Source: Pseudomonadota bacterium
GTDB lineage: Bacteria > Pseudomonadota > Gammaproteobacteria > Burkholderiales > Burkholderiaceae_C
Reading direction: 5' to 3'
DNA: 40,111 nucleotides
Assembly: GCA_030535425.1 (NCBI GenBank)
Contig: JAUNHQ010000017.1
Location: forward strand, 1 to 40,111
The notes beneath the pieces are model-generated. The model was not told the DNA's origin. It worked only from the letters and a program-made list of their open reading frames with translations, and did not search any database. Positions 4,726 through 37,424 of the stretch are shown in pieces. Both the position numbers and the translations under genes were made by a program. Numbering within the stretch: the stretch's first letter is position 1; every line of letters starts with the position of its first letter.

Positions 4726-4779
4726 AAAAACGGCATTTGCGCGCTCTGTATAATGTTTTTAAGCTATAAATAAAATAGC
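4726..4779 (+). repeat. Intergenic repeat copy A (type I)
   Basis: Blocks in order: AAAAA, GGCATTTGCGCGC, a variable middle, then the inverted repeat GCTATAAATAAAATAGC. It is one of seven related copies (others at 23228, 25966, 28184, 32075, 36126, 37371). It lies between the lemA-like gene and rsmB. A perfect TATAAT (4749-4754) occurs in the variable middle of this copy only, so it may have gained a promoter role for rsmB, but I see no matching -35 box. Confidence 0.8.
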
Positions 4780-4851
4780 ATTTATCTTCTCTGTTCCTGC
4801 CTCGCCAAGCGCACGGCGCGCGCCAAGGTGTGTGCAGGCTGTGCCCCCGTC

Positions 4852-6192
4852 ATGTCAGTGTCTGACCATATTTCGGCTCCTTCCGTGGTGCCTTTGTGGC
4901 GCCAGCTTCAGGCTGCGGCGCGCCTGTTGTGCGGCGTGCGTGAAGGGCGCTCGCTCACCCCTCAGCTGGAGGCGGTGGACACCGCCTTGCGCCCTGGCGC
5001 GCAGGCATTGTCCTTTCACGCACTGCGCTGGCTGGGGCTGGCGCAGGGTTTGCGCGAACGCCTGGCCGCACGGCGTCCGCCCGCAGCGGTGGATGCCCTG
5101 CTTTGCACTGCCCTGGCCTTGCTGGCACCCGAAGGGCCGTTGGCCTATCCGCCGTTTACCCTGGTGGATCAAGCGGTGGAGGCCGCCAAACGCGATAAGG
5201 CTCTGCGTGCGCATGCTGCCCTGGTCAACGCCTGCCTGCGGCGATTTCTGCGCGAGCAGGCCAGCTTGATGGCTGCTGTGCGTCAGACCGACGAGGTGGC
5301 GCGTTGGAACCACCCGCGCTGGTGGATCGAACGCTTGCGCCGCGACCATCCTCAGCACTGGCAAGCCATCTTGCAAGCTGCGCAGGGGCACCCACCCATG
5401 GTGCTGCGCGTGAATGTGCAGCGCATCGGCGTGGCCGATTTCATGGCCCAACTGGCGCAGGCAGGCATGCCCGCCACGGCGCTGGGCGGCGCGGCTGTGC
5501 AACTGGACAAGCCGTGTCCTGTGACGCAACTGCCAGGCTTTGCCGATGGCTGGGTGGCCGTGCAATCGGCCAGCGCGCAGATGGCAGCGCCGCTGCTGCT
5601 GGATGGCTTGCCCGCAGCCGCCCCGCGCGTGCTCGATGCCTGCGCCGCCCCGGGCGGCAAGACCGCCCACCTGCTGGCGCTGCGCCCGAGGGCGCAGGTG
5701 CTGGCGCTGGAGGTGGACTCCACGCGCGCGCCGCGTATCGGTCAGAACCTGGCGCGCCTGGGCGTGCAAGCCGATGTGCGCGTGGCCGATGCCGCGCGGC
5801 CAGCGCAATGGTGGCGAGGTGAGCGCTATGACGCCATCTTGCTTGACGCGCCATGCAGCGCCTCTGGCATCACAGCCCGCCACCCAGATGTGCGCTGGCT
5901 GCGGCGCGAGGCCGATATTGCCCAACTGGCCGCTGCGCAGGACGCGCTGCTGCATGCACTGTGGCCACTGCTGCTGCCCGGCGGGCGGCTGCTGTACTGC
6001 ACCTGCTCGGTGTTCAGGCAGGAAGGCAGCGAACGCATACAAATGTTTGCTGCACACCACGCCGATGCGGTGTTGCTGCCTTCGCCAGGCCATTTGCTGC
6101 CTGGTCTGGATGGCAGTGCCGCTGCGCTTGGCGACAATGCAGGCCGTGACGATGGTTTTTATTACGCATTGCTGGACAAGCGCGGCGCTTAG
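4852..6192 (+). CDS. rsmB: 16S rRNA (cytosine(967)-C(5))-methyltransferase RsmB
   Basis: RsmB methylates C967 of 16S rRNA using S-adenosylmethionine. The 446-residue product has an N-terminal NusB-like RNA-binding domain (about residues 15-150) and a C-terminal NOL1/NOP2/Sun Rossmann domain. Visible motifs are the SAM-binding DACAAPGGKTAHLL starting at Asp262, the nucleophile motif LLDAPCSASG with Cys335, and the second catalytic cysteine Cys385 in YCTCSVF. I chose the ATG at 4852; a GTG at 4828 would add eight residues. The last 41 bases overlap the proposed start of the DUF4390 gene. Its position before DUF4390 and ntrYX-like genes matches the order known from other Burkholderiales. Confidence 0.94.
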   Translation: MSVSDHISAPSVVPLWRQLQAAARLLCGVREGRSLTPQLEAVDTALRPGAQALSFHALRWLGLAQGLRERLAARRPPAAVDALLCTALALLAPEGPLAYPPFTLVDQAVEAAKRDKALRAHAALVNACLRRFLREQASLMAAVRQTDEVARWNHPRWWIERLRRDHPQHWQAILQAAQGHPPMVLRVNVQRIGVADFMAQLAQAGMPATALGGAAVQLDKPCPVTQLPGFADGWVAVQSASAQMAAPLLLDGLPAAAPRVLDACAAPGGKTAHLLALRPRAQVLALEVDSTRAPRIGQNLARLGVQADVRVADAARPAQWWRGERYDAILLDAPCSASGITARHPDVRWLRREADIAQLAAAQDALLHALWPLLLPGGRLLYCTCSVFRQEGSERIQMFAAHHADAVLLPSPGHLLPGLDGSAAALGDNAGRDDGFYYALLDKRGA

Positions 6193-6793
6193 GCGCGCGC
6201 TGGGCAGGGCAGGGCTGGCCGTGGCCTTGCTGCTGTGTGGCCTGCTGGCGCTGCCCGCTGCCCGTGCGCAGCACGCTGCGTTGGATACCTTGCGCGTGGA
6301 GCGCACCGAGGATGGCCTGTTTTTGACCGCGAAGGTGGACTTTGATCTGCCCGCCGTGGTGCAGGATGCGCTGCACAAGGGCATTCCCATCTACTTCGTG
6401 GCCGAGGCCGATGTGCTGCGCGAGCGCTGGTACTGGTACGACAGCCAGGTCAGCCAGGCCCGGCGCTACATGCGCGTGGCCTATCAGCCGCTTACGCGCC
6501 GCTGGCGCTTGAACACCTCGCCCGAGCCGCTGTCCAACGCTGGCTTGGGCGTGAGCCTGACACAGCACTACGACACTCTGGATGAAGCCCTGGCCGCTGT
6601 CAGTCGCATTCCACGCTGGCGCATCGCTACGGCACAGGATCTGCAAGGCAATGGCAGGCAGATCTTGCGCTTTCGCTTCCGGCTGGACGCCAGTCAGTTG
6701 CCGCGTACCCTGCAGGTCGGCGCGGTGGGCCAGGCCGACTGGGTGGTGGCGGTGGAGCGGCGTATTGACCTCACGCAGGAGGGCGGGCCGTGA
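6152..6793 (+). CDS. DUF4390 domain-containing secreted protein
   Basis: A 213-residue protein with a hydrophobic signal segment (about residues 16-38, ending in LPAARAQ, a good signal-peptidase I site). The mature part contains the DUF4390 signature: a beta-rich start with RTEDGLFLTAKVDFDLP, then FVAEADVLRERWYW, and YQPLTRRWRLNT. The function of the family is unknown. The start lies inside the 3' end of rsmB in another frame; in-frame alternatives are ATG 6137 and GTG 6146. The TGA stop overlaps the GTG start of the histidine kinase gene by four bases (GTGA), so the two are probably translationally coupled. Constant pairing with an NtrY-type kinase suggests a periplasmic partner of that sensor, but this is inference. 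Confidence 0.85.
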   Translation: MVFITHCWTSAALRRALGRAGLAVALLLCGLLALPAARAQHAALDTLRVERTEDGLFLTAKVDFDLPAVVQDALHKGIPIYFVAEADVLRERWYWYDSQVSQARRYMRVAYQPLTRRWRLNTSPEPLSNAGLGVSLTQHYDTLDEALAAVSRIPRWRIATAQDLQGNGRQILRFRFRLDASQLPRTLQVGAVGQADWVVAVERRIDLTQEGGP

Positions 6794-9840: not shown

Positions 9841-9851
9841 TTCGACTTGTC

Positions 9852-9927
9852 GGCCTGGTAGCTCAGTTGGTAGAGCAGCGGATTGAAAATCCGCGTGTCG
9901 GTGGTTCGATTCCGCCCCAGGCCACCA
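9852..9927 (+). tRNA. tRNA-Phe (GAA), CCA encoded
   Basis: A 76-base cloverleaf. The acceptor stem GGCCTGG (9852-9858) pairs with CCAGGCC (9917-9923). The D arm contains AGCTCAGTTGGTAGAGC. The anticodon stem is GCGGA/TCCGC around the loop TTGAAAA, which gives anticodon GAA for phenylalanine. The T loop is GGTTCGATTCC-type. The discriminator is A and the CCA end is encoded (9925-9927). Confidence 0.97.
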
Positions 9928-9935
9928 AATACAAG

Positions 9936-9966
9936 CGCCCAACTGCTCTGCGGTTGGGCGTTTTTC
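9936..9966 (+). terminator. Rho-independent terminator of tRNA-Phe
   Basis: An 8-bp stem CGCCCAAC (9936-9943) pairs with GTTGGGCG (9953-9960), followed by TTTTTC. It starts nine bases after the tRNA CCA end. Confidence 0.88.
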
Positions 9967-10065
9967 TTTGTGCGCTCCGCACGCTACGCGGGGGTGCGCG
10001 TCGTTTCACGTGTGTCGGAACCTATGCGCGCGTGCCGCAAATCTGGCTCGTTTCCAAAACTGCGC

Positions 10066-10215
10066 TAAGACGTGTTCACACTACTCTTTATTCCGTGTCC
10101 TTTGCCCCCTGATGTCCAGTCCAGGCATGTTGTACATCAGCCAAGACCAATTCAAACGCATCCGCCACCTGCTGCCCCTGCCTCGCGGCAATGTGCGCAT
10201 CAGCCACTTTCGCTT
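10066..10215 (+). mobile_element. Remnant of an IS5-family element (left end only)
   Basis: From the ATG at 10127 (or 10112) the frame reads MLYISQDQFKRIRHLLP followed by LPRGNVRISH. This matches the start of IS5-family transposases, where a (Q/E)QF-R-I-R-LLP block and RGNV are typical. The homology stops at about 10207, just before the IS3-family left end, and the frame runs into a stop at 10235 inside that element. AAGACGTGTTCACAC at about 10067 resembles an IS5-type terminal repeat and would mark the original left end. No right half exists in the window. The remnant is non-functional. The family call is from recall of motifs and was not checked by a search. Confidence 0.6.
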
Positions 10216-10278
10216 TGAAGCCACCTTGAAATCTTGAGCCACGCGGAAGTAGAGAATTTCTTACAACGGAGTCTCTAC

Positions 10279-10545
10279 ATGAAGAAATCCAGGTTCAGTG
10301 AAAGCCAGATCGTTGGCATCCTCAAGGAGGTCGAGCTTGGTGCGAAGGTTGGCGAGACATGCACAAAGCATGGCATCAGAGAGCCGACCTACTACAAGTG
10401 CAAGAGCCAGTTCTCGGGCATGACGGTTTCGCGCCTGGCCCAGTTGCGCGAATTGCAAAGCGAGAACGCCAGACTCAAGCGCATGCACGCCGATCTGGCC
10501 CTGATGCACAGTGCCCTGAAGGATGTCGTTGACCGAAAGCTCTGA
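10279..10545 (+). CDS. IS3-family transposase OrfA
   Basis: An 88-residue protein with a helix-turn-helix (about residues 8-45: [17 protein letters not shown] then [13 protein letters not shown]) that binds the IS ends, followed by a leucine-zipper-like helix ([20 protein letters not shown]) for multimerisation. A CGGAG Shine-Dalgarno precedes the ATG. The last codons contain CGAAAGC (10534-10540), an A-AAG slippery site. A -1 shift there would enter the orfB frame (PKALTPERC...) and make the OrfAB transposase, as usual in IS3 elements. The usual Trp in YYKW is Cys here. Confidence 0.9.
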
Positions 10546-10562
10546 CCCCGGAGCGTTGCCAG

Positions 10563-11375
10563 ATGGTCGTTCGAAGTCTGATGGCCGAGCACGGCATGAG
10601 CCAGCGCAGGGCGTGCATCGCCAGTGGCATTTCCCGCTCCACGCTGCGCTATCGGCCCGTGCCAGGCGACGACTCCGGGGTGATCGAATTCGTTCAAAAT
10701 CACATGGCACTCAATCCTCGCCATGGCTTCGGTCTGCTGCATGCCAGCGCCCGTCATCAGGGCAAGCCTTGGGGCAAGACGGTGCTGTGGCGCGTGTACT
10801 GCGAGTTGCGGTTGAACCTGCCACGCTGGGGCAAGAAGCGTCTGCCTGCGTGCATCAAGCAACCTCTGGAGGCTGCGAATATGCCCAACCGCGGCTGGAG
10901 TTGTGACTTCATGTCCGACGCGCTGTGGTCAGGCCGCAGATTCAGAACCTTCAACGTCATCGACGAATTCAACCGCGAAGGCCTGCGCATCGAGATCGAC
11001 AGCAGTTTGCCGGCAGCGCGGGTCATCCGGGCCTTGAACGAGTTGGTCGAGGTGAGCGGTGCGCCGCTGTCGATTCGCCTGGACAACGGGCCAGAGTTCA
11101 TCGCCAACACGCTGGCCGAATGGGCGCAGAGCAAGGGCATTGCCCTCAATCACATCCAGCCTGGCAAGCCCACGCAGAACGCCTACATGGAGAGATTCAA
11201 CAAGACTTACCGCACCGAGGTGCTGGACTGCTATGTCTTCGAGTCTCTGCAGGAGGTACGTGACATGACAGCCGACTGGCTGCACCGATACAACCACCAC
11301 CGCCCGCATGAATCATTGGGCAGCATCCCACCGCTCGAATACCGTGTGAAGCAATTCCCTAACCTCTACTTCTGA
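10563..11375 (+). CDS. IS3-family transposase OrfB (DDE integrase core)
   Basis: A 270-residue rve-type integrase, in the -1 frame relative to OrfA. It starts with an HTH_21-like part ([20 protein letters not shown]). The catalytic triad is visible: Asp in [11 protein letters not shown], Asp in RLDNGPEF, and Glu in [16 protein letters not shown]. The C-terminal [12 protein letters not shown] block is typical of the family. Translation is expected mainly as an OrfAB fusion by frameshifting, since the ATG at 10563 has no clear ribosome-binding site. The stop codon lies in the right inverted repeat. No internal stop or frameshift is seen, so the element looks intact. Confidence 0.92.
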
Positions 11376-11407
11376 ATGGTTCAGGAAATCGAGGTGGCTT
11401 CAAAGTT

Positions 11408-13813
11408 TTAGTTCTGGAACAAGTCGAGGATACGGTTGCGCTCTTGCGAAGATTCGGGGGCGGGTAAGTCACTAAATCCGAGTGGATCCTCGGGCGGTGC
11501 AAGACCTGCGCCGCCGAGGTTGGTAATGCCGCCGCCGCGTGCGTATTCGGTGTAGTACCATTCGCCGCCCACGCGTGTGACTCCTTCGGGTGTGGGGACT
11601 TCAGCAACGGGCACATCTTTAAGTGCGGACTGCATGAAGTTGATCCAGATAGGCAAACTCAGGCCCCCTCCTGTTTCGCGTGCACCTAAATTACGTGGCG
11701 TGTCGTAGCCCATCCATACCACGGTAACCAAACTGGGCTGATAGCCAGCAAACCAAGCGTCGTAGGAGTCATTGGTGGTGCCGGTTTTCCCATACAGGTC
11801 AGGGCGGCGCAGAGCTGCCTGTGCTTTGGCGGCGGTGCCACTGCGCGTGACGTCCTGCAGCATGGTGCTGGTAATGAATGCATTGCGCGCATCGATGGCG
11901 CGATTGGCTTCTACTGGGCTGGAGGGGATGGCCTCTACCAGCACCTTGCCTGAGTGGTCAGTGATGCGGGTGATGAGAAAGGGAGTAACTTTAAATCCCC
12001 CGTTGGCAAATACCGCGAAGCCAGAGGCCAATTGCATGGGCGTGACCGAGCCGGCGCCCAATGCCATGGTAAGGTAGGCTGGGTGTCTGGCGGCGTCAAA
12101 GCCAAAGCGCGTGACCCACTCCTGCCCGAACTTGGGTGTGATGGTTTCCAGAATACGGATGGAAACGATGTTGCGTGAGCGGGCCAGCGCACGCTTCATG
12201 GTCATGGGGCCTTCAAAGCCACCCTCGTAGTTCTTGGGCTCCCAAGGGCGTCCGCCCGTGACGCTGCTGTCAAAGAACATGGGCGTGTCATTGATCATGG
12301 TGGTAGGCGAAAAGCCTTTCTCAAGACCAGCGGAATAAATGAAGGGCTTGAAGCTGGAACCTGGTTGGCGCCAAGCTTGGGTGACATGGTTGAACTTGTT
12401 CTTGTAGAAGTCAAATCCCCCTATCAGTGCCTTGACGGCACCATTGCGCGGGTCTAGCGCGACCAGGGCGCCTTCCACTTCGGGTAGCTGGGTGATGGAC
12501 CATGTGCCTTTGCTGCCTTGCGTGACACGAATAATCGCGCCTGGGCGGATTTTCACAGCTGGTTGTGCGCGGGTCGTGAGGCCCGTTTGCGCGGCGCGTA
12601 AGCCTGCGCCTTCCACGGCAATGCGCTGGCCGCCGCGGTTCATGACAACCACTTTACGTGTGGAGGCTTCCAGCACCACAACGGCAACCATGTCACCCGT
12701 ATCGGGGTGTTCGGCTAGTGCTTCATCTACTGCCTCTTCCAGTTCGTCCGCAGCAGGATTTTTGGGTAGTTCAATAAATTTCTCTGGGCCACGGTAGGCT
12801 TGGCGCCGATCGTAGTCCAGGATGCCGCGACGCAGCGCGTTGTAGGCGGCGCGCTGATCGGCTGTTGTAATAGATGTATACACATTCAAGCCGCGGCTAT
12901 AGGTTTCTTCGCCGTACTGAGCGAACATCATCTGCCGTACCATCTCTGCCACGTATTCGGCATGCACACGCGTGCTTTCACTGGGGGGGCGGATGCGCAA
13001 CTCCTGCTGTTTGGCCTCAGCCGCCTGCGCAGCGGTGATGAAGCCGTTTTCCTGCATGCGGTCGAGGATGTAGAGCTGGCGCTCCCGGGCGCGGGTGTAG
13101 TTGGCGATGGGGTTGGCGGCGGAGGGAAACTTTGGAATGCCCGCCAGCATGGCTGCCTCGGCAATAGTGATGTCTTTTAGAGGTTTGCCGAAGTAGGTTT
13201 CGGCCGCTGCGGCAAAGCCATAGGCGCGATTGCCCAGAAAGATCTGGTTCATATAAATCTCCAGGATTTGGTCTTTGCTGAGCAGGTGCTCCATCTTGAA
13301 GGTCAACAGCACTTCATAGATCTTGCGGGTGTAGGTTTTTTCGGAAGACAGATAGACATTGCGCGCTACTTGCATGGTGATGGTGGATGCGCCTTGAGAC
13401 TTCTCGCGTCCCAGGTTGGCCAACGCCGCACGTGCCACACCGACGTAGTCCACGCCGCCATGCTCGTAAAAGCGAGCGTCTTCAATGGCGAGTACGGCGT
13501 CCTTCATCACCTGGGGGATTTCGCCGATGGGCGTGAGGTGACGTCGCTCCTCGCCAAACTCGCCGATCAGTGCGCCTTCGGCGGTGTAGACCCGCAAAGG
13601 CAGTTTGGGGCGATAGTTGGAAAGCTGAGAAACGTCTGGCAGGTTAGGGTAGGCGATGGCCAGCGCCATCAGCGCGGCCATGGCAGCAGAAAGCAACAGT
13701 GCTACCGCGATGCCAGTCATCCAGGCCAGAGCCCTCAGCACCCAGGCCAGCACGCTTGTGCTGGCAGTGCCCGTGCGCTTGTTCACGGCAGCCGCCGAAT
13801 TTTGAGTGGGCAT
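11408..13813 (-). CDS. mrcA: Penicillin-binding protein 1A, bifunctional peptidoglycan synthase
   Basis: An 801-residue class A PBP that polymerises glycan strands and crosslinks stem peptides on the outer face of the inner membrane. A cytoplasmic tail and one membrane helix (about residues 21-54) precede the GT51 glycosyltransferase domain with Glu111 in EDARFYEHGG. An OB-like insertion follows, then the transpeptidase domain with Ser486-x-x-Lys489 (PGSSFKP), an SRN motif in ARSRNIVS, and Lys676-Thr-Gly (GKTGTTNDSYD). The ATG at 13813 was chosen over 13882 because the extra 23 residues are unlike PBP1A starts. Divergent pairing with pilMNOPQ is the classical proteobacterial order. An IS3 element abuts the 3' end, and the genes usually found downstream are not present. 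Confidence 0.95.
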   Translation of the reverse strand: MPTQNSAAAVNKRTGTASTSVLAWVLRALAWMTGIAVALLLSAAMAALMALAIAYPNLPDVSQLSNYRPKLPLRVYTAEGALIGEFGEERRHLTPIGEIPQVMKDAVLAIEDARFYEHGGVDYVGVARAALANLGREKSQGASTITMQVARNVYLSSEKTYTRKIYEVLLTFKMEHLLSKDQILEIYMNQIFLGNRAYGFAAAAETYFGKPLKDITIAEAAMLAGIPKFPSAANPIANYTRARERQLYILDRMQENGFITAAQAAEAKQQELRIRPPSESTRVHAEYVAEMVRQMMFAQYGEETYSRGLNVYTSITTADQRAAYNALRRGILDYDRRQAYRGPEKFIELPKNPAADELEEAVDEALAEHPDTGDMVAVVVLEASTRKVVVMNRGGQRIAVEGAGLRAAQTGLTTRAQPAVKIRPGAIIRVTQGSKGTWSITQLPEVEGALVALDPRNGAVKALIGGFDFYKNKFNHVTQAWRQPGSSFKPFIYSAGLEKGFSPTTMINDTPMFFDSSVTGGRPWEPKNYEGGFEGPMTMKRALARSRNIVSIRILETITPKFGQEWVTRFGFDAARHPAYLTMALGAGSVTPMQLASGFAVFANGGFKVTPFLITRITDHSGKVLVEAIPSSPVEANRAIDARNAFITSTMLQDVTRSGTAAKAQAALRRPDLYGKTGTTNDSYDAWFAGYQPSLVTVVWMGYDTPRNLGARETGGGLSLPIWINFMQSALKDVPVAEVPTPEGVTRVGGEWYYTEYARGGGITNLGGAGLAPPEDPLGFSDLPAPESSQERNRILDLFQN

Positions 13814-14137
13814 ATCACAACAACAATAAGTTAGCAGACACTTTATGCGAAAGTCTGAGCTGTCCGTGCCCTTGTGTCGCAAGCCCGGAAAGATCTTGTG
13901 TCAGGAGGCCGCATTGTGCGCAGAGTTCTGTGAAGGCAGTGAGAAGTGCGTGGCACATGGCGGCGCCAAGAAGTGGCTGTAGGTAAGCAAGTGTCCGTAA
14001 ACGTTAGTTTTTGACAACGAAAAGAGGCTGGCGGGGCGGTTTTTTTCTTGGCCCGCAGAGGGGCTTACTGCTAGCATTCATGTGACTTCTTGATTGCCTA
14101 CATGTTTTTTTAACAAAAAAAGTAACAGGATACAGCC
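13814..14137. other. Divergent intergenic region mrcA / pilM
   Basis: These 324 bases separate two divergent transcription units and must hold the promoters for both. A TTGACA occurs at 14011-14016 on the plus strand, but no good -10 lies at the right distance. A TGCTAGCAT stretch (14070-14078) and a T-run (14104-14112) are present. I see no gene, repeat copy or terminator here. Confidence 0.5.
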
Positions 14138-15214
14138 TTGAATACAGGGTCGTTGTTCAGCCGCCAGCCGGCACCCATGATTGGGCTCGATATCAGCTCG
14201 TCCAGCATCAAGCTGGTGGAGCTGTCGCAAGATCGCGCCGGTAAGCTTGTGCTTGATCGCTGTGGTATTGAGCCGCTGGAGCGCGGCTGGATCAGTGATG
14301 GCAACATTGAGAGGTTTGATGAGGTCGTAGAGGCTGCGCGCCGGCTGATTGCCAAAAGCGGTACCAAAGCCAAGCAGGTCATCATGGCGCTGCCTGCATC
14401 AGTGGTGATCAGCAAGAAGATCATTTTGCCGGGTGGCTTGAGTGAGCGAGAGCTGGAAGTGCAGGTGGAGTCTGAGGCCAACCAGTACATACCTTTTTCG
14501 CTGGATGAGGTCAGTCTTGACTTTTGCGTCATTGGGCCGAGTACGACATCAGCGGGCGATGTCGAGGTGATGATTGCGGCTGCCCGCAAGGAGAAAGTTG
14601 AAGATCGCCAAGGGTTGGCAGAGGCCTGTGGCTTGGTCCCTGTTGTTCTTGATGTAGAGAACTATGCGGCGCGCTTGGCTGCGGGGCGAGTTATTGAGCT
14701 TCTTCCGGGGGGGGGCAGAGATGCTGTGGTGGCGCTGTTTGAAATCGGTGCCATAACATCCAACATGCAGGTGTTGCGTAATAGTGAGTTGCTGTATGAG
14801 CGTGATCAAGTATTTGGCGGAGCGCAGCTGACGCAGATGCTGGTGCGTCAGTATGGTTTTACTCAAGAAGAGGCGGAAAACAAAAAACGCGCAGGTGACT
14901 TGCCTGACGACTATGGGCAAACGGTGCTTGAGCCCTTTGTGGAGACGTTGGCGCAAGAGGTTGAGCGTGCGCTTAAATTTTTCTTTACCAGTACCCCTTA
15001 TAACCGGGTGGACTACATTTTACTGGCGGGCGGCACGGCGGGCTTGTCAGGATTGACGGAAGTGGTTACGCGGCATACTTCATTCCCTTGTCAAGTGGTT
15101 AATCCCTTTAATGGGATGGAGATGGGTAAAGGTGTGCGTGAAAACAAGGTGCGACGCGAAGCGCCCTCCTATTTGACGGCCTGTGGATTGGCCATGCGGA
15201 GGTTTCTGCGGTGA
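14138..15214 (+). CDS. pilM: Type IV pilus assembly protein PilM
   Basis: A 358-residue actin-like cytoplasmic ATP-binding protein that docks to the N-terminal tail of PilN and links the inner-membrane platform to the pilus motors. The N-terminal phosphate-binding segment MIGLDISSSSIKLVEL is visible near residue 14, and the C-terminal LLAGGTAGLSGL is an actin-fold adenosine motif. The start is a TTG at 14138, supported by an AGGA Shine-Dalgarno seven bases upstream and by the SLFSRQPAP prefix typical of beta-proteobacterial PilM. The next in-frame ATG (14177) would remove that prefix. The TGA overlaps the GTG start of pilN by four bases. Confidence 0.93.
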   Translation: MNTGSLFSRQPAPMIGLDISSSSIKLVELSQDRAGKLVLDRCGIEPLERGWISDGNIERFDEVVEAARRLIAKSGTKAKQVIMALPASVVISKKIILPGGLSERELEVQVESEANQYIPFSLDEVSLDFCVIGPSTTSAGDVEVMIAAARKEKVEDRQGLAEACGLVPVVLDVENYAARLAAGRVIELLPGGGRDAVVALFEIGAITSNMQVLRNSELLYERDQVFGGAQLTQMLVRQYGFTQEEAENKKRAGDLPDDYGQTVLEPFVETLAQEVERALKFFFTSTPYNRVDYILLAGGTAGLSGLTEVVTRHTSFPCQVVNPFNGMEMGKGVRENKVRREAPSYLTACGLAMRRFLR

Positions 15215-15819
15215 TTTTGATTAATTTACTTCCTCACCGTGAAATGGCGCGCAAGCGTGCGCGTCAGGTGTTCAATGCCTCTCTCGGAATGGCGGCCCTG
15301 GCAGGTGCTGTGATCGCGGGTGGTGTTTATCTTTGGTTTCAAAGTGAAATTTCGCTGCAACAAGGAAGGAATCATTTTTTATCAAATGAAATAGCTATTC
15401 TGGACGATCAGATCAAGGAGATCGCCTCGTTGGAGGGGGAGATTGCTGCGCTTAAGGCTCGCCAAGAGGCGGTTGAAAATCTTCAGTCTGATCGAAATAT
15501 GCCTGTTCATTTGATGAATGAATCTGTGCGACAGCTGCCTAATGGATTGTATTTAAGAAGCATTAAGCAAGAGGGGCAAAATGTCTTGATTATGGGGTCG
15601 GCTCAATCGAATGAGCGCGTCTCTGAATTGTTGAGGAATTTATCTCGCAACAGTGAGTGGGTGACTAAGCCAGAGTTGGTCGAAATTGTAGCAGCCAATA
15701 TAGCGCTGGGTCCGCGCGAGAAGCGTAGGGTTTATGACTTTACCTTGCGTGTGCAGCTGCAGCGCGCCAGTGATGTGGCGGCCGCGGCATCGGCAGCGTC
15801 TGCTGCATCCAACGCATAA
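15211..15819 (+). CDS. pilN: Type IV pilus assembly protein PilN
   Basis: A 202-residue bitopic inner-membrane protein. The N-terminal INLLPHREMARKRARQVF is the conserved PilM-binding tail. One membrane helix follows (about residues 23-43), then a coiled-coil stretch and a ferredoxin-like periplasmic domain that pairs with PilO. It starts with GTG overlapping the pilM stop. The C-terminus ends in an Ala/Ser-rich tail. Base composition is visibly lower in G+C than in flanking genes. Confidence 0.93.
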   Translation: MILINLLPHREMARKRARQVFNASLGMAALAGAVIAGGVYLWFQSEISLQQGRNHFLSNEIAILDDQIKEIASLEGEIAALKARQEAVENLQSDRNMPVHLMNESVRQLPNGLYLRSIKQEGQNVLIMGSAQSNERVSELLRNLSRNSEWVTKPELVEIVAANIALGPREKRRVYDFTLRVQLQRASDVAAAASAASAASNA

Positions 15820-15838
15820 CAGGCACGCAGGACTAAGC

Positions 15839-16531
15839 ATGACTCGTAAATCCTCAATAAATATTGATGTTGCTGCTACCTTGCGCGGGGTAGGTGATCA
15901 GTTTCGGGGTTTGGATACGCGTGACCCATCTTCCTGGCCGGCAATTCCACGTTATTTTTTGCTAATCATAGTGGCTGCATTGGTGGTTTTGCTTGCATGG
16001 CTGGCCTTGCTCAAAGGGGAGAAGGAGTCCCTAGAAGGTGAGCGTAGCAAGGAAATGACTCTGCGGGCAGACTATCAGAGTAGGTTGAAAAAAGCAGTTA
16101 GTTTGGAGGAGTTGAAAAAACAAAAGGAGCAGGTTAGGCAGTATGTAGACTTGCTGGAAAAACAGCTTCCTAGTCGTGCTGAAATGGATGCTCTTTTATC
16201 GGACATCAATCAGGCTGGCTTGGGGCGTGGCCTGCAGTTTGACTTGTTTCGCCCAGGTCAGTTGGTTATTCAGGATTATTATGCGGAGCTCCCAATTGCA
16301 TTGAAGGTGACCGGTGGATATCATGATATTGGCGCTTTTGCGGCCGACGTTGCTCATCTCTCGCGCATTGTGACATTGAATAATATTTCTGTGGCTCCGA
16401 GTCCGGAAAAGGAAAAGGCGGGATCGCTTGTGCTTGAGGCAACAGCTAAAACCTTTCGCTATCTGGATCAAGAAGAGGTGGAGGCGCAGAGGAGAGCAAA
16501 AGCTGCAGAAAATCGCGGGGGTGGCAAGTGA
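15839..16531 (+). CDS. pilO: Type IV pilus assembly protein PilO
   Basis: A 230-residue inner-membrane protein. A cytoplasmic segment with LRGVGDQFRGLDTRDPSSWP precedes one membrane helix (about residues 39-61), a coiled coil (about 65-120) and a periplasmic domain (about 130-210) with the PilO motif DLFRPG and ELPIALKVTGGYHDIGAF. It forms heterodimers with PilN and contacts PilP. I chose the ATG at 15839, 19 bases after the pilN stop, with a GCAGGA Shine-Dalgarno. The stop TGA overlaps the GTG start of pilP by four bases. The gene has the lowest G+C of the operon: 23 of the 60 bases at 16081-16140 are G or C. Confidence 0.93.
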   Translation: MTRKSSINIDVAATLRGVGDQFRGLDTRDPSSWPAIPRYFLLIIVAALVVLLAWLALLKGEKESLEGERSKEMTLRADYQSRLKKAVSLEELKKQKEQVRQYVDLLEKQLPSRAEMDALLSDINQAGLGRGLQFDLFRPGQLVIQDYYAELPIALKVTGGYHDIGAFAADVAHLSRIVTLNNISVAPSPEKEKAGSLVLEATAKTFRYLDQEEVEAQRRAKAAENRGGGK

Positions 16532-21262: not shown

Positions 21263-21278
21263 TGGCGATCAGCTTGCT

Positions 21279-23121: not shown

Positions 23122-23227
23122 GGCGTGGACGCAAAGAGGCCGATTGTCGGCGACAGTGGCTCAGGTGGCCGTGGGGGCGGCCGACAGGATGGAAGATGTG
23201 CTGGGGGCGATTGGCGCATGGTGCCTG

Positions 23228-23280
23228 AAAAGGCATTTGCGCGCACTGTCAAATGGTTTGTAGCTATATAAATTATAGCT
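23228..23280 (+). repeat. Intergenic repeat copy B (type I)
   Basis: AAAAGGCATTTGCGCGC at the left, a variable middle, and the inverted repeat AGCTATATAAATTATAGCT at the right. It lies between prfA (start at 23121) and the DUF4124 gene (stop at 23406), both on the minus strand. The rest of the 284-base gap shows nothing else I can name. Confidence 0.85.
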
Positions 23281-23405
23281 GTTATGCGGTGGCGCTTGAG
23301 GCAGTAAATCAACGCCTGGTGTGCTGCTTCGCAAATGCCTGCACATCCCATCGCGTCTTTCGCGCCAGGGCTGCGTTGCCAATGCCCGCCGATGCCGATA
23401 CCGCC

Positions 23406-24251: not shown

Positions 24252-25961
24252 ATGCCTGCTTTCCTGCGCCGCGCCTTGCCTTTTCTGAACTGGCCCCGCC
24301 CCAGCCTGGCGCTGCTGCGCACCGAGGCGCTGGCGGGGCTGACGGTGGGGCTGATGATGGTGCCGCAGGCGGTGGCCTATGCGCAGCTGGCGGGCATGCC
24401 GCCGGTCACGGGCATTTATGCCGCCTTGCTGCCTGCCCTGGTGGCGGTGCTGTTTGCCAGCGCCAAGCGGCTGTCGGTGGGGCCCACGGCGCTGACGGCG
24501 CTGCTGGTGTCGGCCGCGCTGACCGGGCTGGCCGAGCCGGGCAGCGCCCAGTGGGTGACGCTGGCGGTGTGGCTGGCGCTGATGAGCGGGGCGCTGCAAG
24601 TGCTGCTGGGCCTGGCGCGCTTTGGCTGGCTGCTGAACCTGGTCAGTGCGCCGGTGCTGATGGCGTTCACGCAGGGGGCGGCGGTGCTCATCATCGCTTC
24701 GCAGCTGCCGGCGCTGCTGGGCCTGCCGAGTCTGGGGCTGCACACGCTGGCCGGCGGGCCGTGGCCCGCATGGGACTGGCGGGCAGCGCTGTATGGCGGG
24801 GTGGCGCTGGCGCTGCTGGTGCTGCTCAAGCACTGGCGGCCCGCGTTTCCCAGCGTGCTGCTGGTGGTGCTGGCCACGGCGGCGCTGGCCTGGGCCACGG
24901 GTTTCGAGGCCGCAGGCGGCGCCGTGGTGGGCGCCCTGCCCCACGGTCTGCCCACGCTGGCGCTGCCGGGCTGGCCGGGCTGGGCCACGCTGTCGCAATT
25001 GATCTTGCCGGCGCTGGTCATCACGCTGGTGAGTTTTTTGGAAACCGCCTCCAGCGCACGCGTGGACAGCGAACGCCTGGGTCAGCACTGGAACCAGGAT
25101 CAGGACTTGCTCAGCCAGGGCCTGGCCAAGCTGGCGGCGGGCCTGTCGGGCACGTGGGCCACCAGCGCGTCGTTTTCGCGCTCGGCGCTGAATTTGTACG
25201 CGGGCGCACAAACGGGCTGGGCCACGGTGTGCATGGTGGCGGTGGTGCTGGCGGTGCTGCTGTTGCTCACCCCCGTGTTGCAGCACGTGCCGCGCGCGGT
25301 GCTGGCGGCCATTGTGGTGGCGGCCGTGCTGGGGCTGATCAAGCCGCGCGAGTTTGTGCGCCTGTGGCGTGTGTCGCGGCCCGAGGCGGTGATGGCCGCC
25401 ATCACCCTGGCCCTGACCCTGGCCGCCGCACCCGCGCTGTACTGGGGGGTGCTGGCCGGGGTGCTGATGACGCTGGGCCATTTCGTCTACCAGCGCCTGC
25501 ACCCGCGCATCATCGAAGTGGGCCTGCACACGGACGGCAGCTTGCGCGACCGCCAGCTGTGGCAGCTGCCGCCGCTGGCGCCGCACACCCTGGCGCTGCG
25601 GCTGGATGCGGCGCTGGACTTTGCCACCGCCAGCGCGCTGGAAAGCCGCGTGGCCGGCGAGCTGGCGGCGCAAGCCGGTGTGCGGCACCTGGTGCTGTTT
25701 GCCCAGCCCATCAACCGCATCGACGCCACCGGCTGCGAAACGCTGCTGAAGCTGATGCTGCGCACCCAGGGCCAGGGCATCACCTGGCACCTGGCGGGGC
25801 TGAAGCTGCCGGTGGAAAACAGGCTGCGCGCCGCCGGGGCGCTGCACCCCGGCCCGCAGCTGCGCCTGTACCGCACCGACACGCAGGCGCTGGCCGCACT
25901 GCGCCGCATGGCAGAGGAAGAGGGCCACACCCCCGCCGACTTGCCCGCGGCGGCGATTTGA
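24252..25961 (+). CDS. SulP family anion transporter with STAS domain
   Basis: A 569-residue inner-membrane transporter of the SLC26/SulP family, which carries sulfate, bicarbonate or dicarboxylates. It has the SulP signature near the N-terminus (GLTVGLMMVPQAVAYAQLAGMPPVTGIYAAL), about a dozen hydrophobic helices, the conserved FLETASSARV segment and FSRSALN loop, and a C-terminal cytoplasmic STAS domain (about residues 440-550: LALRLDAALDFATASALE ... INRIDATGCETL). I chose the ATG at 24252, directly before the first conserved block; upstream ATGs at 24156 and 24177 would add an atypical leader. The substrate cannot be told. It is divergent from the DUF4124 gene, and repeat copy C begins four bases past its stop. 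Confidence 0.9.
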   Translation: MPAFLRRALPFLNWPRPSLALLRTEALAGLTVGLMMVPQAVAYAQLAGMPPVTGIYAALLPALVAVLFASAKRLSVGPTALTALLVSAALTGLAEPGSAQWVTLAVWLALMSGALQVLLGLARFGWLLNLVSAPVLMAFTQGAAVLIIASQLPALLGLPSLGLHTLAGGPWPAWDWRAALYGGVALALLVLLKHWRPAFPSVLLVVLATAALAWATGFEAAGGAVVGALPHGLPTLALPGWPGWATLSQLILPALVITLVSFLETASSARVDSERLGQHWNQDQDLLSQGLAKLAAGLSGTWATSASFSRSALNLYAGAQTGWATVCMVAVVLAVLLLLTPVLQHVPRAVLAAIVVAAVLGLIKPREFVRLWRVSRPEAVMAAITLALTLAAAPALYWGVLAGVLMTLGHFVYQRLHPRIIEVGLHTDGSLRDRQLWQLPPLAPHTLALRLDAALDFATASALESRVAGELAAQAGVRHLVLFAQPINRIDATGCETLLKLMLRTQGQGITWHLAGLKLPVENRLRAAGALHPGPQLRLYRTDTQALAALRRMAEEEGHTPADLPAAAI

Positions 25962-25965: not shown

Positions 25966-26022
25966 GCTATATTAAATATAGCTGCTTGCGCGCATCAGAC
26001 AGGCGCAAATGGCCTTTTTGGC
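25966..26022 (-). repeat. Intergenic repeat copy C (type II)
   Basis: On the plus strand: GCTATATTAAATATAGC, then TTGCGCGC, then GGCGCAAATGGCC and TTTTTGGC. It is therefore inverted relative to copies A, B, D, E and G. An internal TTGCGC/GCGCAA pairing is present. It lies between the convergent sulP and methyltransferase genes. Confidence 0.8.
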
Positions 26023-28150: not shown

Positions 28151-28183
28151 GGGGCGGGCAGGGGCTCAAGGCACAGGGGGTTA

Positions 28184-28240
28184 GCCAAAAAAGGCATTTG
28201 CGCGCGACTATAAAGGGTTTTGCGCTATATAAATGGTAGC
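28184..28240 (+). repeat. Intergenic repeat copy D (type I)
   Basis: GCCAAAAAAGGC, ATTTGCGCGC, then AAAGGGTTTTGCGC and the inverted repeat GCTATATAAATGGTAGC. It lies between folE (start at 28150) and msrB (stop at 28266), both on the minus strand. It is closest to copy G in its second half. Confidence 0.85.
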
Positions 28241-28265
28241 TTTATCTTGGCGCCGCACGCGGGTC

Positions 28266-28673: not shown

Positions 28674-30175
28674 GAGGAGCAGCTGATGTGGATGTCGGCC
28701 GCCCAGTCGGGCGGAAAACCGGCCCAGGCGGCGTGGCGGGGGTGGTCGTGAAACGGCGCTTGCAGCACGGCGAGCAGCTCGTGCAGCATGCCAAAGTCTT
28801 GTTCTTTGGCCAGGGCAATGGCTTGCTCGGCCAGGTAGTTGCGCAGCACGAAGGCGGGGTTGGTGTTGAGCATTAAATGAGTGTCTGGCGCTTGTCCAGA
28901 GCGTGCGAACAGCTCCTGATACTGTAGCAAAAAGGCTTGGGCAGCGGCTTGGTCGTGGAACAGGTCGAGCACGATGCTGGCGGGCTGGCCGGCGGCGTGC
29001 TGGCTCAGGCGGCGCCAAAAGAGGGTCCAGTCGGTGCGCTCGCGCGCCATCAGCGCCAGCAGCGTTGACACCAGGGCGCGGCTGGCGTCGCTGGCCTGGG
29101 GCAGGCCCAGCTTGGCGGCCATGCGCGCGTCCAGCTCGGCGGGGAACAGGGTTTTGAAAGGCTCCAGCGCGGCCAGGGCGTCGTCGGGCTCGCCGATCAG
29201 GGGCAGCAGCGCCTGGCCCAGGGCAAACAGGTTCCAGTGCGCGATCTGGGGCTGGCGCTGGTAGCTGTAGCGCCCGTGGTGGTCGGAGTGGTTGCAGATG
29301 TGGGCGGGGTCAAAGCCGTCCATGAACTGAAACGGCCCGTAGTCGATGGTCAGGCCCAGGATGCTCATGTTGTCGGTGTTCATCACCCCGTGCATGAAGC
29401 CCACGGCCTGCCACTGGGCGATGAGCGCGGCGGTGCGGCGGGTCACCTGGGCCAGCAGGTCGGCATAGGGGTTGGCCGCGTGCTGGCTGGCGGGGTAGTG
29501 GCGGGCGATGACGTGATCGGCCAGGGTTTTGAGCGCATCCAGCTGCCCGGTGGCGCGGAAGTGCTCGAAATGCCCAAAGCGGATGAAGCTGGGCGCCACG
29601 CGGGTGACGACGGCGGCGGTTTCCATGCTTTCGCGGCGCACGGGCGCGGGCGAGCCCACCACGCACAGCGCGCGCGTGGTGGGCACGCCCAGCGCGTGCA
29701 TGGCTTCGCTGCACAAGAACTCGCGAATGGACGAGCGCAGCACGGCGCGCCCGTCGCCCATGCGCGAATAGGGGGTCAGGCCACTGCCCTTGAGTTGCAG
29801 CTCCTGGGGGCCGGCGGCGGGCGTGTCCACCTCGCCCAGCAGCAGCGCGCGCCCGTCGCCCAGCTGCCCGGCCCACACGCCAAACTGGTGGCCGCTGTAC
29901 ACGCTGGCCAACGGCTGGCTGCCGGGCAGCACTAGGTTGCCCGCCAGCGCGGGCAGGGCATCAGGCGCTTGCCACCAGTCATCGGGCAGGCCCAGCTCGC
30001 GCGCCATGGCGGCGCTGCGGCCCACCCAGTACGGATCGGGCAGGGGCTGCGGCGGCAGGCGCGTGAAAAAGGCTTCGCCCAGTTGCGCAAAGCCCGGCCG
30101 CCAGCGCAGGGGCAGGGCAGCGGGCGCCTCAGCAGGTGCGGGTTGGGCCACAGAGTGGGGGGAAGAAGTGCGCAT
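28670..30175 (-). CDS. selO: Protein adenylyltransferase SelO (YdiU/UPF0061)
   Basis: A 501-residue pseudokinase-fold enzyme that transfers AMP to Ser, Thr or Tyr of target proteins and is linked to oxidative stress responses. Family marks are [18 protein letters not shown] near residue 93, [21 protein letters not shown], and the catalytic region [23 protein letters not shown] with the metal-binding Asn and Asp. The protein ends in SCSS; the conserved C-terminal Cys replaces selenocysteine of animal SelO and takes part in redox control. It is followed by msrB with a four-base overlap and is divergent from the acyl-CoA synthetase gene, with 109 bases between the start codons. Confidence 0.93.
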
Positions 30176-32046: not shown

Positions 32047-32074
32047 CTCTATGGGAAAGCCAAAACTTTTATGA

Positions 32075-32129
32075 GAAAAATGGCTTTCGCGCGCGTTCCA
32101 TAAGGGATTTGAGCTATTAAAAATATAGC
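32075..32129 (+). repeat. Intergenic repeat copy E (type I)
   Basis: AAAAATGGCTTTCGCGCGC at the left, TAAGGGATTTGAGC in the middle, and the inverted repeat GCTATTAAAAATATAGC at the right. It is the most diverged type I copy, with TTTCGCGCGC in place of TTTGCGCGC. It lies between convergent genes. Confidence 0.75.
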
Positions 32130-32215
32130 GAATGCCGATGCGCGCATGCACACCGGCATGCCGCGCCGACGGCCCAGTGGCCCATGGCCGGCTTGGGCCG
32201 ATGGCGGGGCTGGGG

Positions 32216-36125: not shown

Positions 36126-36179
36126 TAAAAAATATAGCTTCTTGCGCTTGATACACAAGCGCTATTGGCCAAAAAGGCT
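36126..36179 (-). repeat. Intergenic repeat copy F (type II)
   Basis: On the plus strand: TAAAAAATATAGCTTCTTGC, then GCGCTTG and CAAGCGC around a five-base loop (a perfect 7-bp hairpin), then GGCCAAAAAGGC. It is inverted relative to type I copies and most like copy C. It lies between the start of pepN and the stop of prfB. Confidence 0.8.
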
Positions 36180-36186
36180 TGAAACA

Positions 36187-37291
36187 TCAAACGCCTTGCT
36201 TCAAGCTGGCTTCGATGAAGGCGTCCAGATCGCCGTCCAGCACTTTTTGCGTGTTGCTGATTTCAACGTTGGTGCGCAAGTCCTTGATGCGGCTTTGGTC
36301 CAGCACGTAGCTGCGGATCTGGTGGCCCCAGCCCACGTCGGTTTTGCTGTCTTCGAGCTTTTGCTGCGCTTCCATGCGCTTGCGCATTTCAAAGTCATAC
36401 AGGCGCGAGCGCAGGCGGCGCCAGGCCACGTCGCGGTTGCTGTGCTGGCTGCGGCTGTCCTGGCATTGCACGACGATGCCGGTGGGCAGGTGCGTCAGGC
36501 GCACGGCCGAGTCGGTTTTGTTGATGTGCTGGCCGCCCGCACCGGAGGCGCGGTAGGTGTCCACGCGCACGTCGGCGGGGTTGATGTCGATCTCGATGGA
36601 GTCGTCGATCTCGGGGTAGACGAACACGCTGGCAAAGCTGGTGTGGCGCCCGCCGGAGGAGTCAAAGGGCGATTTGCGCACCAGCCGGTGTACGCCGCTT
36701 TCAGTGCGCAGCAGGCCGAAGGCGTATTCACCCTCGATCTTGATGGTGGCGCTTTTGATGCCAGCGGTTTCGCCCGGGGTTTCGTCTTCCAGGTCGGTCT
36801 TGAAGCCTTTGCGTTCGGCGTATTTGAGGTACTGGCGCAGCAGCATGCTGGCCCAGTCCTGGGCCTCGGTGCCGCCGGCGCCGGCCTGGATGTCGAGAAA
36901 GCAGTTGTTGGGGTCGGCCGGCTGGTTGAACATGCGGCGGAATTCCAGCTGCTCCACGCTGGCGGCCAGGCCGTCAACGTCGCTGGCGATGGACTGCAAC
37001 GCGGCTTCGTCGCCCTCGTCGCGGCTCATCTCGAACAGCTCGGCGTTGTCGGCCAGCTGCTGGGTCAGCTCATCGAGCACGACCACGACGCCATCGAGCG
37101 CCTTTTTCTCCTTGCCCAGCTCCTGGGCTTTCTTGGGGTCGTTCCAGACGGCGGGGTCTTCCAGCGCGGCGTTGACGGTGCGCAGGCGTTCGGCTTTGCC
37201 AGGGTAGTCAAAGATACCCCCGTAGCGCGTCGGTGCGCGCACGCAGGTCGTGGATGCGGGTGGTGATTTGGTTCAGTTGTTCGGCGTCCAT
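36187..37291 (-). CDS. prfB: Peptide chain release factor 2, with programmed +1 frameshift
   Basis: RF2 ends translation at UGA and UAA. The gene is read as 27 codons from the ATG at 37291 to an in-frame TGA (37208-37210), then continues in the +1 frame for 340 codons, giving about 367 residues. The frameshift site reads CGG GGG TAT CTT TGA C; the G-run is the internal Shine-Dalgarno and CTT-TGA-C is the slip site, as in most bacteria. After the shift the protein reads [10 protein letters not shown]. The GGQ motif lies in [21 protein letters not shown]. Low RF2 raises frameshifting and so restores RF2 (known autoregulation). The second frame alone starts artificially at 37242. Confidence 0.95.
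37205..37222 (-). promoter_or_regulatory. RF2 programmed frameshift site
   Basis: On the minus strand, GGGGG lies three bases before CTTTGAC, matching the conserved RF2 recoding site. The base before the G-run is C, giving CGGGGGTATCTTTGAC, where the common form has A. Confidence 0.95.
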
Positions 37292-37370
37292 GAGAGGTGT
37301 CCTTGGCAAAGAGGGAGTGAGGTGGGTTGTGGCAAGCCCCGGCGCGGCACAGGCCAGGGGCTTATACGTT

Positions 37371-37424
37371 AAAAAAGCTGTTTGCGCGCTATTGGTAAGG
37401 GTTTTGCGCTATAAAAATATTAGC
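37371..37424 (+). repeat. Intergenic repeat copy G (type I)
   Basis: AAAAAAGCTGTTTGCGCGC at the left, TAAGGGTTTTGCGC in the middle, and the inverted repeat GCTATAAAAATATTAGC at the right. It ends three bases from the gspD stop codon and lies upstream of prfB. Confidence 0.85.

What the first reader, a model, noticed from the sequence alone, without database searches (positions are those of the whole stretch)
4726..37424. Seven copies of a roughly 55-bp bipartite repeat, all between genes
Copies lie at 4726-4779, 23228-23280, 25966-26022, 28184-28240, 32075-32129, 36126-36179 and 37371-37424. Shared parts are an A-run often framed as GCC-AAAAA-GGC, a TTTGCGCGC-like box, and an A/T-rich inverted repeat close to GCTATATAAATTATAGC. 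All seven lie outside genes and none separates genes that overlap or nearly touch. Five (type I) point one way on the plus strand; two (type II: 25966 and 36126) point the other way and carry an internal GCGC hairpin. Copies end within three to five bases of the sulP and gspD stops. This looks like a family of REP- or MITE-like elements, or a conserved mRNA 3'-end signal. I recall similar A/T-rich repeats in related genomes but know of no assigned function.
Basis: partly seen in the sequence, partly recalled or inferred. Interest (0 to 1): 0.75.

Follow-up and report, generated by a model that had tools for sequence, protein, structure and literature searches.

The report
Abundant 60-bp motif of Comamonadaceae genomes
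A 60-letter DNA motif is scattered hundreds of times through the genomes of many Comamonadaceae bacteria and behaves more like a recognition signal kept by the cell than like a jumping repeat, possibly a label that helps these bacteria take up DNA of their own kind.

Summary
The seven copies are real, and an eighth lies inside the SelO gene (28871-28930). They belong to one 60-bp family: about 580 copies per genome here (77 in 440 kb sampled), about 1050 in a finished relative, present in 60 of 126 sampled genera of its family, almost nothing elsewhere in the order. Fragments were very probably printed in 2017 as 'potential novel motifs' without function (PMC5217627). The REP/MITE and mRNA 3'-end readings are not well supported: copies ignore gene orientation, pairing does not covary between copies, REP-transposase-like genes are not required. 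Copies inside genes did not lengthen them: in 31 comparisons over five genes with orthologs lacking the motif, length differs by 0 codons (24), 1 (5) or 2 (2), never by 20. Copies follow their own genome's dialect. This looks like a maintained recognition sequence. My best guess is a DNA uptake signal: Verminephrobacter is reported to take up DNA selectively through its pili and Acidovorax temperans to be transformed only by its own species' DNA, and the motif is missing from 100 kb of plasmid. Uptake itself is untested. A chromosome-binding protein site and an overwriting mobile element are the main rivals.

The parts
4722..4781 (-). motif copy, type I, between an ORF ending at 4686 (+) and rsmB (+)
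   Evidence: R1 66.0 bits; genes
23222..23281 (-). motif copy, type I, upstream of a peptide-release-factor-like gene (-)
   Evidence: R1 62.5 bits
25964..26023 (+). motif copy, type II, starts just after the sulP stop, convergent pair
   Evidence: R1 63.1 bits, R2 67.0 bits (this copy was in both training sets)
28183..28242 (-). motif copy, type I, between GTP cyclohydrolase I (-) and an ORF/selO (-)
   Evidence: R1 68.9 bits
   Evidence: R2 33.7 bits, E 1.1e-9 (not in a training set); no 20-aa insertion in SelO against 6iii
32072..32131 (-). motif copy, type I, between an AMP-binding-enzyme gene (+) and fbp (-), convergent pair
   Evidence: R1 62.8 bits
36120..36179 (+). motif copy, type II, between pepN (-) and a second release-factor-like gene (-)
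   Evidence: R1 51.7 bits, R2 62.4 bits (this copy was in both training sets)
37367..37426 (-). motif copy, type I, ends just short of the gspD C-terminal ORF
   Evidence: R1 60.7 bits

Best explanation
The copies are instances of one 60-bp DNA recognition sequence that the genome gains, keeps and re-tunes by substitution, not insertions of a repeat. What it most likely does: it is an uptake signal for natural transformation. A surface receptor of the type IV pilus DNA-uptake machinery would bind it, so that DNA of the same lineage is imported and recombined more often. That bias would itself spread and hold the motif (molecular drive) and make all copies of a genome shift together into a dialect when the receptor changes. 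Shown here: nearly fixed length, dispersal, indifference to gene orientation, in-gene copies without length change, genome-wide dialects. Inferred: that a protein recognises it, and that this protein serves DNA uptake. I put about 0.7 on 'maintained recognition motif rather than inserted repeat' and about 0.38 on the uptake role.
For: 1) Copies inside genes. Of 302 copies at PWM >=30 bits in five congeneric genomes, 70 lie inside genes. Five of these genes have held orthologs that lack the motif (PWM <10 bits, >=55% identity): 31 comparisons, 24 without length change, 5 with one codon, 2 with two, none with 20. They are tsaD 14 of 14 gap-free, pepN 7 of 14 gap-free, three others 1 of 1 each. 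A second look for alignments broken at the copy, which the first would have dropped, found one, with a difference under one codon (42 of 70 copies had a spanning hit). TsaD aligns gap-free there to 3zet and SelO is 2 aa shorter than 6iii. G018 lacks the tsaD motif, its supported neighbour G001 has it, same length. 2) Concerted change between G004 and G001: 32 of 36 and 19 of 25 copies fit their own genome's profile in leave-one-out scoring; nine same-place pairs are 0.52-0.77 identical against means of 0.50-0.64 to other copies. 3) Near-fixed length: 121 of 125 G027 matches of 25.6 bits or more are exactly 60 nt. 4) In G027 copies are close to independent draws from a profile: 69 strong copies z 2.2, pairs >=0.8 identical 4 against 2.05 expected. 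5) Fewer close neighbours than random: 16 spacings <1 kb against 25.2 +/- 3.7. 6) No match in 100 kb of two Polaromonas plasmids or in a 20-kb G027 stretch with an integrase, iron-uptake-type genes and a restriction-modification-type gene; 2 viral contigs for each of two strict patterns. 7) PMC4212676 (abstract and passages read) reports sequence-specific, type IV pilus-dependent transformation in Verminephrobacter and transformation of A. temperans only by its own species' DNA. A. temperans and A. facilis each reach the 150-match ceiling.
Against: About 55 bits over 60 bp (0.916 bits per column) is far longer than known uptake signals, and hard to build by point mutation. Two subtypes coexist in this genome and a third middle part occurs in G003, more like subfamilies of a copied element. 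Copies are not fully independent: all 118 G027 copies z 8.6, one exact pair, top-20 pairs above every shuffle; G004, G001 and both G000 types z 5 to 28, perhaps from decayed copies, perhaps from descent. Same-place pairs are somewhat more alike than the average paralog in 5 of 9 cases, and only 5 of the 9 G001 members fit G001's profile. In G000 only 50 of 77 R1 matches are exactly 60 nt, 72 are 58-60. Counts per 20 kb are Poisson-like (variance/mean 0.94) and the spacing variation alone is within about 1.3 sd of random. A. temperans and A. facilis profiles hardly differ (14 of 300 permutations as high, top-scoring copies only), so dialect does not explain the reported barrier; A. delafieldii carries the motif but showed no transformation in that paper. 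ComEC is nearly universal (291 of 299; missing in 3 of 117 motif genomes and 5 of 182 others). Synonymous codons in the tsaD site are not unusually conserved (z 0.6 among bearers, -1.7 among motif-rich genomes). One in-gene copy (L092:4063) shows 9-12 codon gaps against relatives of 31-46% identity. The motif-free stretch was picked because it had no copy; copy number follows GC weakly (rho 0.42, p 0.04) and coding score not (p 0.31). Plasmid density was compared with no matching Polaromonas chromosome.
Confidence: 0.38

Rival explanations
1. A dispersed binding site of a chromosome-organising or nucleoid protein. The two inverted repeats (GCTAT-N7-ATAGC and GCGC...GCGC) would be dimer sites, the A/T runs bend DNA, and copies are held by selection.
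For: Same evidence for a maintained motif as in the best explanation; somewhat fewer close neighbours than random; both strands about equally used (66 + and 55 -) without link to GC skew (rho -0.18, p 0.38); genome profiles tend to keep the middle arms complementary (G004 GG/CC, G027 TTG/CAA; but G001 TTG/CGG does not pair in double-stranded DNA).
Against: No candidate protein was sought or found; no known 60-bp site of this kind comes to mind (recalled). Very different copy numbers among relatives, 0 to above the ceiling within one genus, fit an essential chromosome function poorly.
Confidence: 0.27
2. A non-autonomous mobile or self-copying hairpin element (REP, IS200/IS605-like or MITE), with copies spread by a transposase and sometimes overwriting existing sequence of equal length.
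For: Hairpins in the consensus; subtypes; mostly between genes and scarce between divergent genes (26 convergent, 5 divergent); clean 65-bp presence/absence at A 94910; copies not independent in several genomes; association with Y1_Tnp over the family; in G004 a 40.3-bit and a 20.5-bit copy lie on either side of the single Y1_Tnp gene (L059:5806 and 4932 around 5368-5643).
Against: Ends are not inverted repeats; in-gene copies do not change length; no covariation between copies; genomes without Y1_Tnp are rich in copies; at the other four Y1_Tnp genes examined no copy of 20 bits or more lies within 500 bp of the matched domain (L055, L056, L057, L058); few near-identical pairs.
Confidence: 0.24
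3. A transcript end: bidirectional terminator or mRNA 3' stabiliser.
For: Tandem-gene copies in G027 lie nearer the upstream stop than the next start (38 of 55, p 0.006); convergent pairs are favoured (20 against 6 in G027, p 0.07); T-run at one end.
Against: Orientation is random (49 with, 41 against); no pairing covariation; 8 of 10 single folds have z above -2, the two below are both strands of one copy; downstream of fbp a separate GC hairpin with T-run follows the copy (read by eye); 36 of 121 G027 copies lie inside genes.
Confidence: 0.06

Closest known systems
Motif pairs GCTTAT(N)5AAGCG (Acidovorax ebreus) and ATAGCT(N)22CAAAAG (Polaromonas naphthalenivorans), PMC5217627 Table 7
   Same: Very probably parts of this family: letters and spacing like the middle arms and the ATAGCT block, same family of bacteria, 94% and 81% intergenic, many between convergent genes (section 13 read).
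   Different: The paper gives pairs of short words with 114 and 125 copies and no function; in section 13 it does not describe a 60-bp unit, dialects, or in-gene copies without insertion. I did not search those two genomes.
Haemophilus influenzae uptake signal sequence (USS)
   Same: Dispersed, GC core beside A/T tracts, recognised in DNA uptake (passages of PMC7811141).
   Different: USS has a 9-bp core and about 1 kb spacing, in a gammaproteobacterium; here 60 bp, about 4-6 kb, and no uptake test.
Neisseriaceae DNA uptake sequence dialects
   Same: Copies of a genome share a dialect and related species differ (abstract of PMC3630211).
   Different: DUS is short (9-11 bp by a passage of PMC4212676) and read by the receptor ComP (abstract start of PMC3868556 in a search listing); no receptor is known here.
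REP elements with RAYT transposases
   Same: Short, palindromic, hundreds of copies, mostly between genes at 3' ends (recalled).
   Different: No requirement for a Y1_Tnp gene, no covarying hairpin between copies, no insertion seen in genes.
BRE of Bordetella and other Betaproteobacteria, PMC3110155
   Same: Repeat of Betaproteobacteria including Comamonadaceae, usually intergenic (passages read).
   Different: 75-91 bp (one partial of 50), mean 69% GC, 1-29 copies per listed genome, partly tandem; here 60 bp, 25-70% GC, hundreds of copies.

Membership tests
DNA uptake sequence (USS/DUS) | DNA carrying the motif is taken up or transforms better | not testable with these tools
   Needs an uptake assay. 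Only reports of specific transformation in relatives exist (PMC4212676).
DNA uptake sequence (USS/DUS) | Strong over-representation, dispersed, both orientations | tested here: met
   77 copies in 440 kb, 121 in 500 kb of G027, 66 + and 55 -
DNA uptake sequence (USS/DUS) | Occurs inside genes without insertion | tested here: met
   31 comparisons over 5 genes, none with a 20-codon change; check for broken alignments
DNA uptake sequence (USS/DUS) | Species dialects shared by the copies of a genome | tested here: met
   for G004 and G001; but A. temperans and A. facilis hardly differ
DNA uptake sequence (USS/DUS) | Short motif of about 9-12 bp core | tested here: not met
   60 columns, 0.916 bits per column
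DNA uptake sequence (USS/DUS) | Competence machinery present | tested here: inconclusive
   ComEC family (PF03772) in 291 of 299 genomes, so not discriminating
REP/RAYT | Dependence on a RAYT (Y1_Tnp) gene | tested here: not met
   G003, G006, G007 rich without Y1_Tnp; 8 of 58 rich family genomes without; positive association p 0.001
REP/RAYT | Hairpin kept by compensating changes between copies | tested here: not met
   Paired cells 77.5% observed, 77.4% shuffled; covariation score 0.121 against 0.120, 51 type II copies
REP/RAYT | RAYT gene flanked by copies | tested here: inconclusive
   Flanked on both sides in L059 (G004); not within 500 bp at 20 bits or more in L055, L056, L057, L058; a 16.8-bit R1 match at the gene end in L055
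MITE | Terminal inverted repeats and target duplication | tested here: not met
   Ends read TTGCTAT and GGCC-T-run in aligned copies, not inverted repeats; target duplication not tested
Intrinsic terminator | Oriented with the upstream gene | tested here: not met
   49 with, 41 against, p 0.46
BRE repeat | 75-91 bp, about 69% GC | tested here: not met
   Copies are 60 bp, window copies 32-50% GC; paper passages
Rfam RNA family | Match at the gathering score | tested here: not met
   Only a tRNA in the window

The most novel reading that the evidence does not exclude
Comamonadaceae carry a further, independently evolved DNA-uptake signalling system beside those of Neisseriaceae and Pasteurellaceae, with a 60-bp signal, longer than any I know of, present in hundreds of copies and re-tuned in dialects across dozens of genera.
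Probability: 0.31. Interest if true: 0.88.

Novelty: new variant of a known kind. Interest (0 to 1): 0.62.

Why it matters
Sequence-selective DNA uptake is well established in Neisseriaceae and Pasteurellaceae (passage of PMC4212676). Specific transformation was reported in Verminephrobacter and Acidovorax, and the passages I saw name no signal (the word 'motif' does not occur in that paper); this motif is a concrete, cheaply testable candidate. Even if it is not an uptake signal, a 60-bp sequence kept at hundreds of places, also inside genes and without insertion, would be an unusual kind of bacterial recognition site, and it would warn against reading every dispersed intergenic palindrome as a mobile repeat.

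Tried and rejected
Rfam at gathering score: nothing but a tRNA. Exact pattern GCCAAAAAGGCNTTTGCGC in the own genome: 0. Single-copy folding: 8 of 10 folds not better than z -2. Bordetella BRE: different repeat. RNA structure kept between copies: rejected. Orthologous position of the fbp copy: not shared as such; some congeners have their own copy there. Synonymous conservation in tsaD: no excess, so I do not claim it. Dialect difference as the cause of the Acidovorax species barrier: not supported. ComEC presence: uninformative. A first belief that L113:2097 lies in fbp was wrong; it lies in pepN. The 51-copy alignment A4 was chosen by hand: type II copies set to 60 nt; one copy with an extra base (L108:11629) and one mis-set row (L065) were left out, so its freedom from gaps is partly selected. 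In the G027 count, four non-60-nt matches (L285:12567, L272:45, L286:3734, L107:15310) and matches under 25.6 bits were left out. On re-checking I ran: the first supports the no-insertion result, the second showed copies beside the Y1_Tnp gene in G004, for which I lowered the uptake odds slightly and raised the mobile rival. Literature: eight searches; none of the listings showed a paper naming this motif as an uptake signal; 'DNA uptake sequence' with 'Comamonadaceae' gave 0 papers. I read PMC5217627 section 13 and passages, PMC4212676 abstract, section list and passages, PMC3630211 abstract and section list, PMC7811141 and PMC3110155 passages; PMC3868556 only in a search listing.
Full report
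What was checked. The window is the whole contig C54 of a 3.31-Mb, 144-contig genome. Its genus is Ottowia by inference: the congener G001 has a contig of 4008472 bases, the length of Ottowia beijingensis GCS-AN-3 record NZ_JACCKX010000001.1. With that orientation type I and type II differ mainly in about 15 columns of the middle: type I reads TAAAACCCTT-like, type II carries GCGCTTG-N5-CAAGCGC-like arms. G003 has a third middle part.

How many, and where. Model R1, built from the seven, reaches the ceiling of 150 scored matches in the own genome. In 440 kb I kept 77 of 103 matches, about 580 per genome by extrapolation. Of the 77, 50 are exactly 60 nt and 72 are 58-60 nt. Model R2, from 51 chosen type II copies of four genomes, adds others, among them an eighth window copy at 28871-28930 inside selO. 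In the finished relative G027, 500 kb hold 121 counted copies, about 1050 per genome. In G000, 66 of 77 copies lie mostly outside my gene calls (26 convergent, 35 tandem, 5 divergent) and 11 inside. In G027, 117 copies could be placed: 36 inside genes, 81 outside, 20 of the latter touching a gene (4 more at stretch ends). Gene calls come from a codon model of my own, not from an annotation. Tandem-gene copies do not follow gene direction: 49 with, 41 against.

Distribution. Over the order, 5 of the 6 genomes listed for the own family and 2 of the other 194 have an R2 match at E <= 1e-5, the latter one match each; one of these reaches 33.4 bits, about as high as the SelO copy, so single matches at that level can occur by chance in many genomes (only 27 candidates scored per genome). 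Over the family, 117 of 299 genomes and 60 of 126 genera have a match (18 candidates scored per genome, so counts are ceilings). Within Ottowia 23 of 29 genomes have R1 matches, from 0 to the ceiling.

Not a transposed REP or MITE or a folded RNA, on most of this evidence. Y1_Tnp, the RAYT domain, has no match in G003, G006 and G007, which hold 92, 87 and 39 motif matches, and has one in G010, G023, G024 and G026, which hold none (G024 below the family cut-off). Over the family, 17 of 117 motif genomes and 57 of 182 others lack it: an association (p 0.001), but no requirement. Of five Y1_Tnp loci examined, one (G004) has copies on both sides within 500 bp of the matched domain, four do not; at about one copy per 4 kb this is suggestive at most. 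Base pairing between copies shows no covariation above shuffles (77.5 against 77.4% paired cells).

Copies inside genes. The strongest observation concerns tsaD. In 11 of 26 Ottowia genomes the stretch that encodes ...PLxxxxLAQAGQALxAIDxVA... is written so that it is also a motif copy (PWM 37.7-57.0 bits); in the other 15 (13.3 bits or less) the same stretch has other codons and the same length. The TsaD structure 3zet aligns without a gap there. On a tree of tsaD and fbp without the site (24 genomes; bootstrap not settled) the trait needs 5 changes, 2 forced by well-supported branches; G018 lacks it while its supported neighbour G001 has it. Over all, 70 of 302 copies at 30 bits or more in five genomes lie inside genes; a motif-free control of 45.5 kb gave none. 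For five of them I hold orthologs at >= 55% identity that lack the motif: 31 comparisons, 24 with no length difference, 5 with one codon, 2 with two. Set aside: rows with an ortholog score of 10 bits or more, second rows from the same genome, and rows under 55% identity, among them L092:4063 with gaps of 9-12 codons. Since an insertion could split an alignment and so escape, I looked for split alignments: of 70 copies 7 lay too near a gene end, 47 had any hit in another genome, 42 a spanning one; one split pair appeared, with a difference under one codon. SelO in the window is 2 aa shorter, not 20 longer, than 6iii. So these copies arose by substitution or by equal-length overwriting, not insertion.

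Concerted change. G004 and G001 were compared over 160 kb each (43 and 37 copies); they are congeners, not nearest neighbours. With copies of 25 bits or more and 60 nt, 32 of 36 and 19 of 25 fit their own genome's profile in leave-one-out scoring. Nine same-place pairs, picked by eye, are 0.52-0.77 identical, while the mean identity of the G004 copies to other copies is 0.50-0.64; the pair is more alike than the mean G004 paralog in 5, equal in 2, less in 2, and 8 of 9 G004 but 5 of 9 G001 members fit their own profile. Some sites are present in one and absent in the other. Within G027 the copies are close to independent draws from a profile when only the 69 strong ones are used (z 2.2), less so for all 118 (z 8.6), with one exact pair and a top-20 mean identity of 0.790 against 0.769; neighbouring columns are linked, for example the T-run that turns to an A-run as a block. 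In G004, G001 and G000 they are less independent (z 5 to 28), which weakens this argument.

What it may be. A sequence of near-fixed length, dispersed, indifferent to transcription, gained and lost in place, and re-tuned as a set resembles the uptake signals of Neisseriaceae and Pasteurellaceae (abstract of PMC3630211; passages of PMC7811141). Comamonadaceae are a plausible place: Verminephrobacter eiseniae was reported to take up DNA specifically and through type IV pili, and A. temperans to be transformed only by its own species' DNA (PMC4212676). A. temperans and A. facilis genomes both reach the 150-match ceiling. The motif has no match in 50 kb each of two Polaromonas plasmids (Polaromonas chromosomes were not measured) and none in one of 25 G027 stretches, which carries iron-uptake-type genes, an integrase and a restriction-modification-type gene (examined because it was empty), and it is rare in the viral collection (2 contigs for each of two strict patterns). 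Against this stand the length, the coexisting subtypes, the near-identity of the two Acidovorax profiles, A. delafieldii, which carries the motif but was not seen to transform, and the lack of any receptor or uptake measurement. A nucleoid or segregation protein site would explain most of the same facts.

Prior art. The pairs GCTTAT(N)5AAGCG and ATAGCT(N)22CAAAAG of PMC5217627 (Table 7) very likely are fragments of this family, reported with no function in Acidovorax ebreus and Polaromonas naphthalenivorans. That identification rests on matching letters and spacing, not on a search of those two genomes.

Noticed in passing
window 37428-40054 (-): gspD is split over two overlapping ORFs in different frames (secretin domain in 37428-38492, N-terminal domains in 38459-40054): a frameshift, a sequencing error or a broken gene.
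   Followed up: no
window 22039-23121 and 36187-37242 (-): Two genes with PCRF and RF-1 domains, 360 and 351 aa, presumably the two release factors.
   Followed up: no
window about 9850-22000: A stretch with lower third-position GC, a tRNA at 9852-9924 followed by an integrase-core ORF, then penicillin-binding protein, pilMNOPQ and an ORF with invasin-like Ig domains; it holds no motif copy at E <= 0.1 with R2.
   Followed up: partly
L278:18053-18610 (G027): Four motif copies 165 or 168 bp apart, a small tandem array.
   Followed up: no
G027:C1: Twenty Y1_Tnp matches in one genome, several with the same score, which looks like an active IS200-like family beside the usual single longer gene.
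   Followed up: no
L059:4932-5865 (G004): Motif copies of 20.5 and 40.3 bits on either side of the Y1_Tnp gene.
   Followed up: partly
motif columns 53-57, several loci: The T-run of the motif is replaced as a block by an A-run in some copies (columns 54-56 linked), so the A/T tract rather than its strand seems to matter.
   Followed up: partly
window 23253-25961 (+): The sulP ORF runs about 350 codons upstream of the permease domain; the gene caller starts it at 24252 and sees a minus-strand ORF before it.
   Followed up: no
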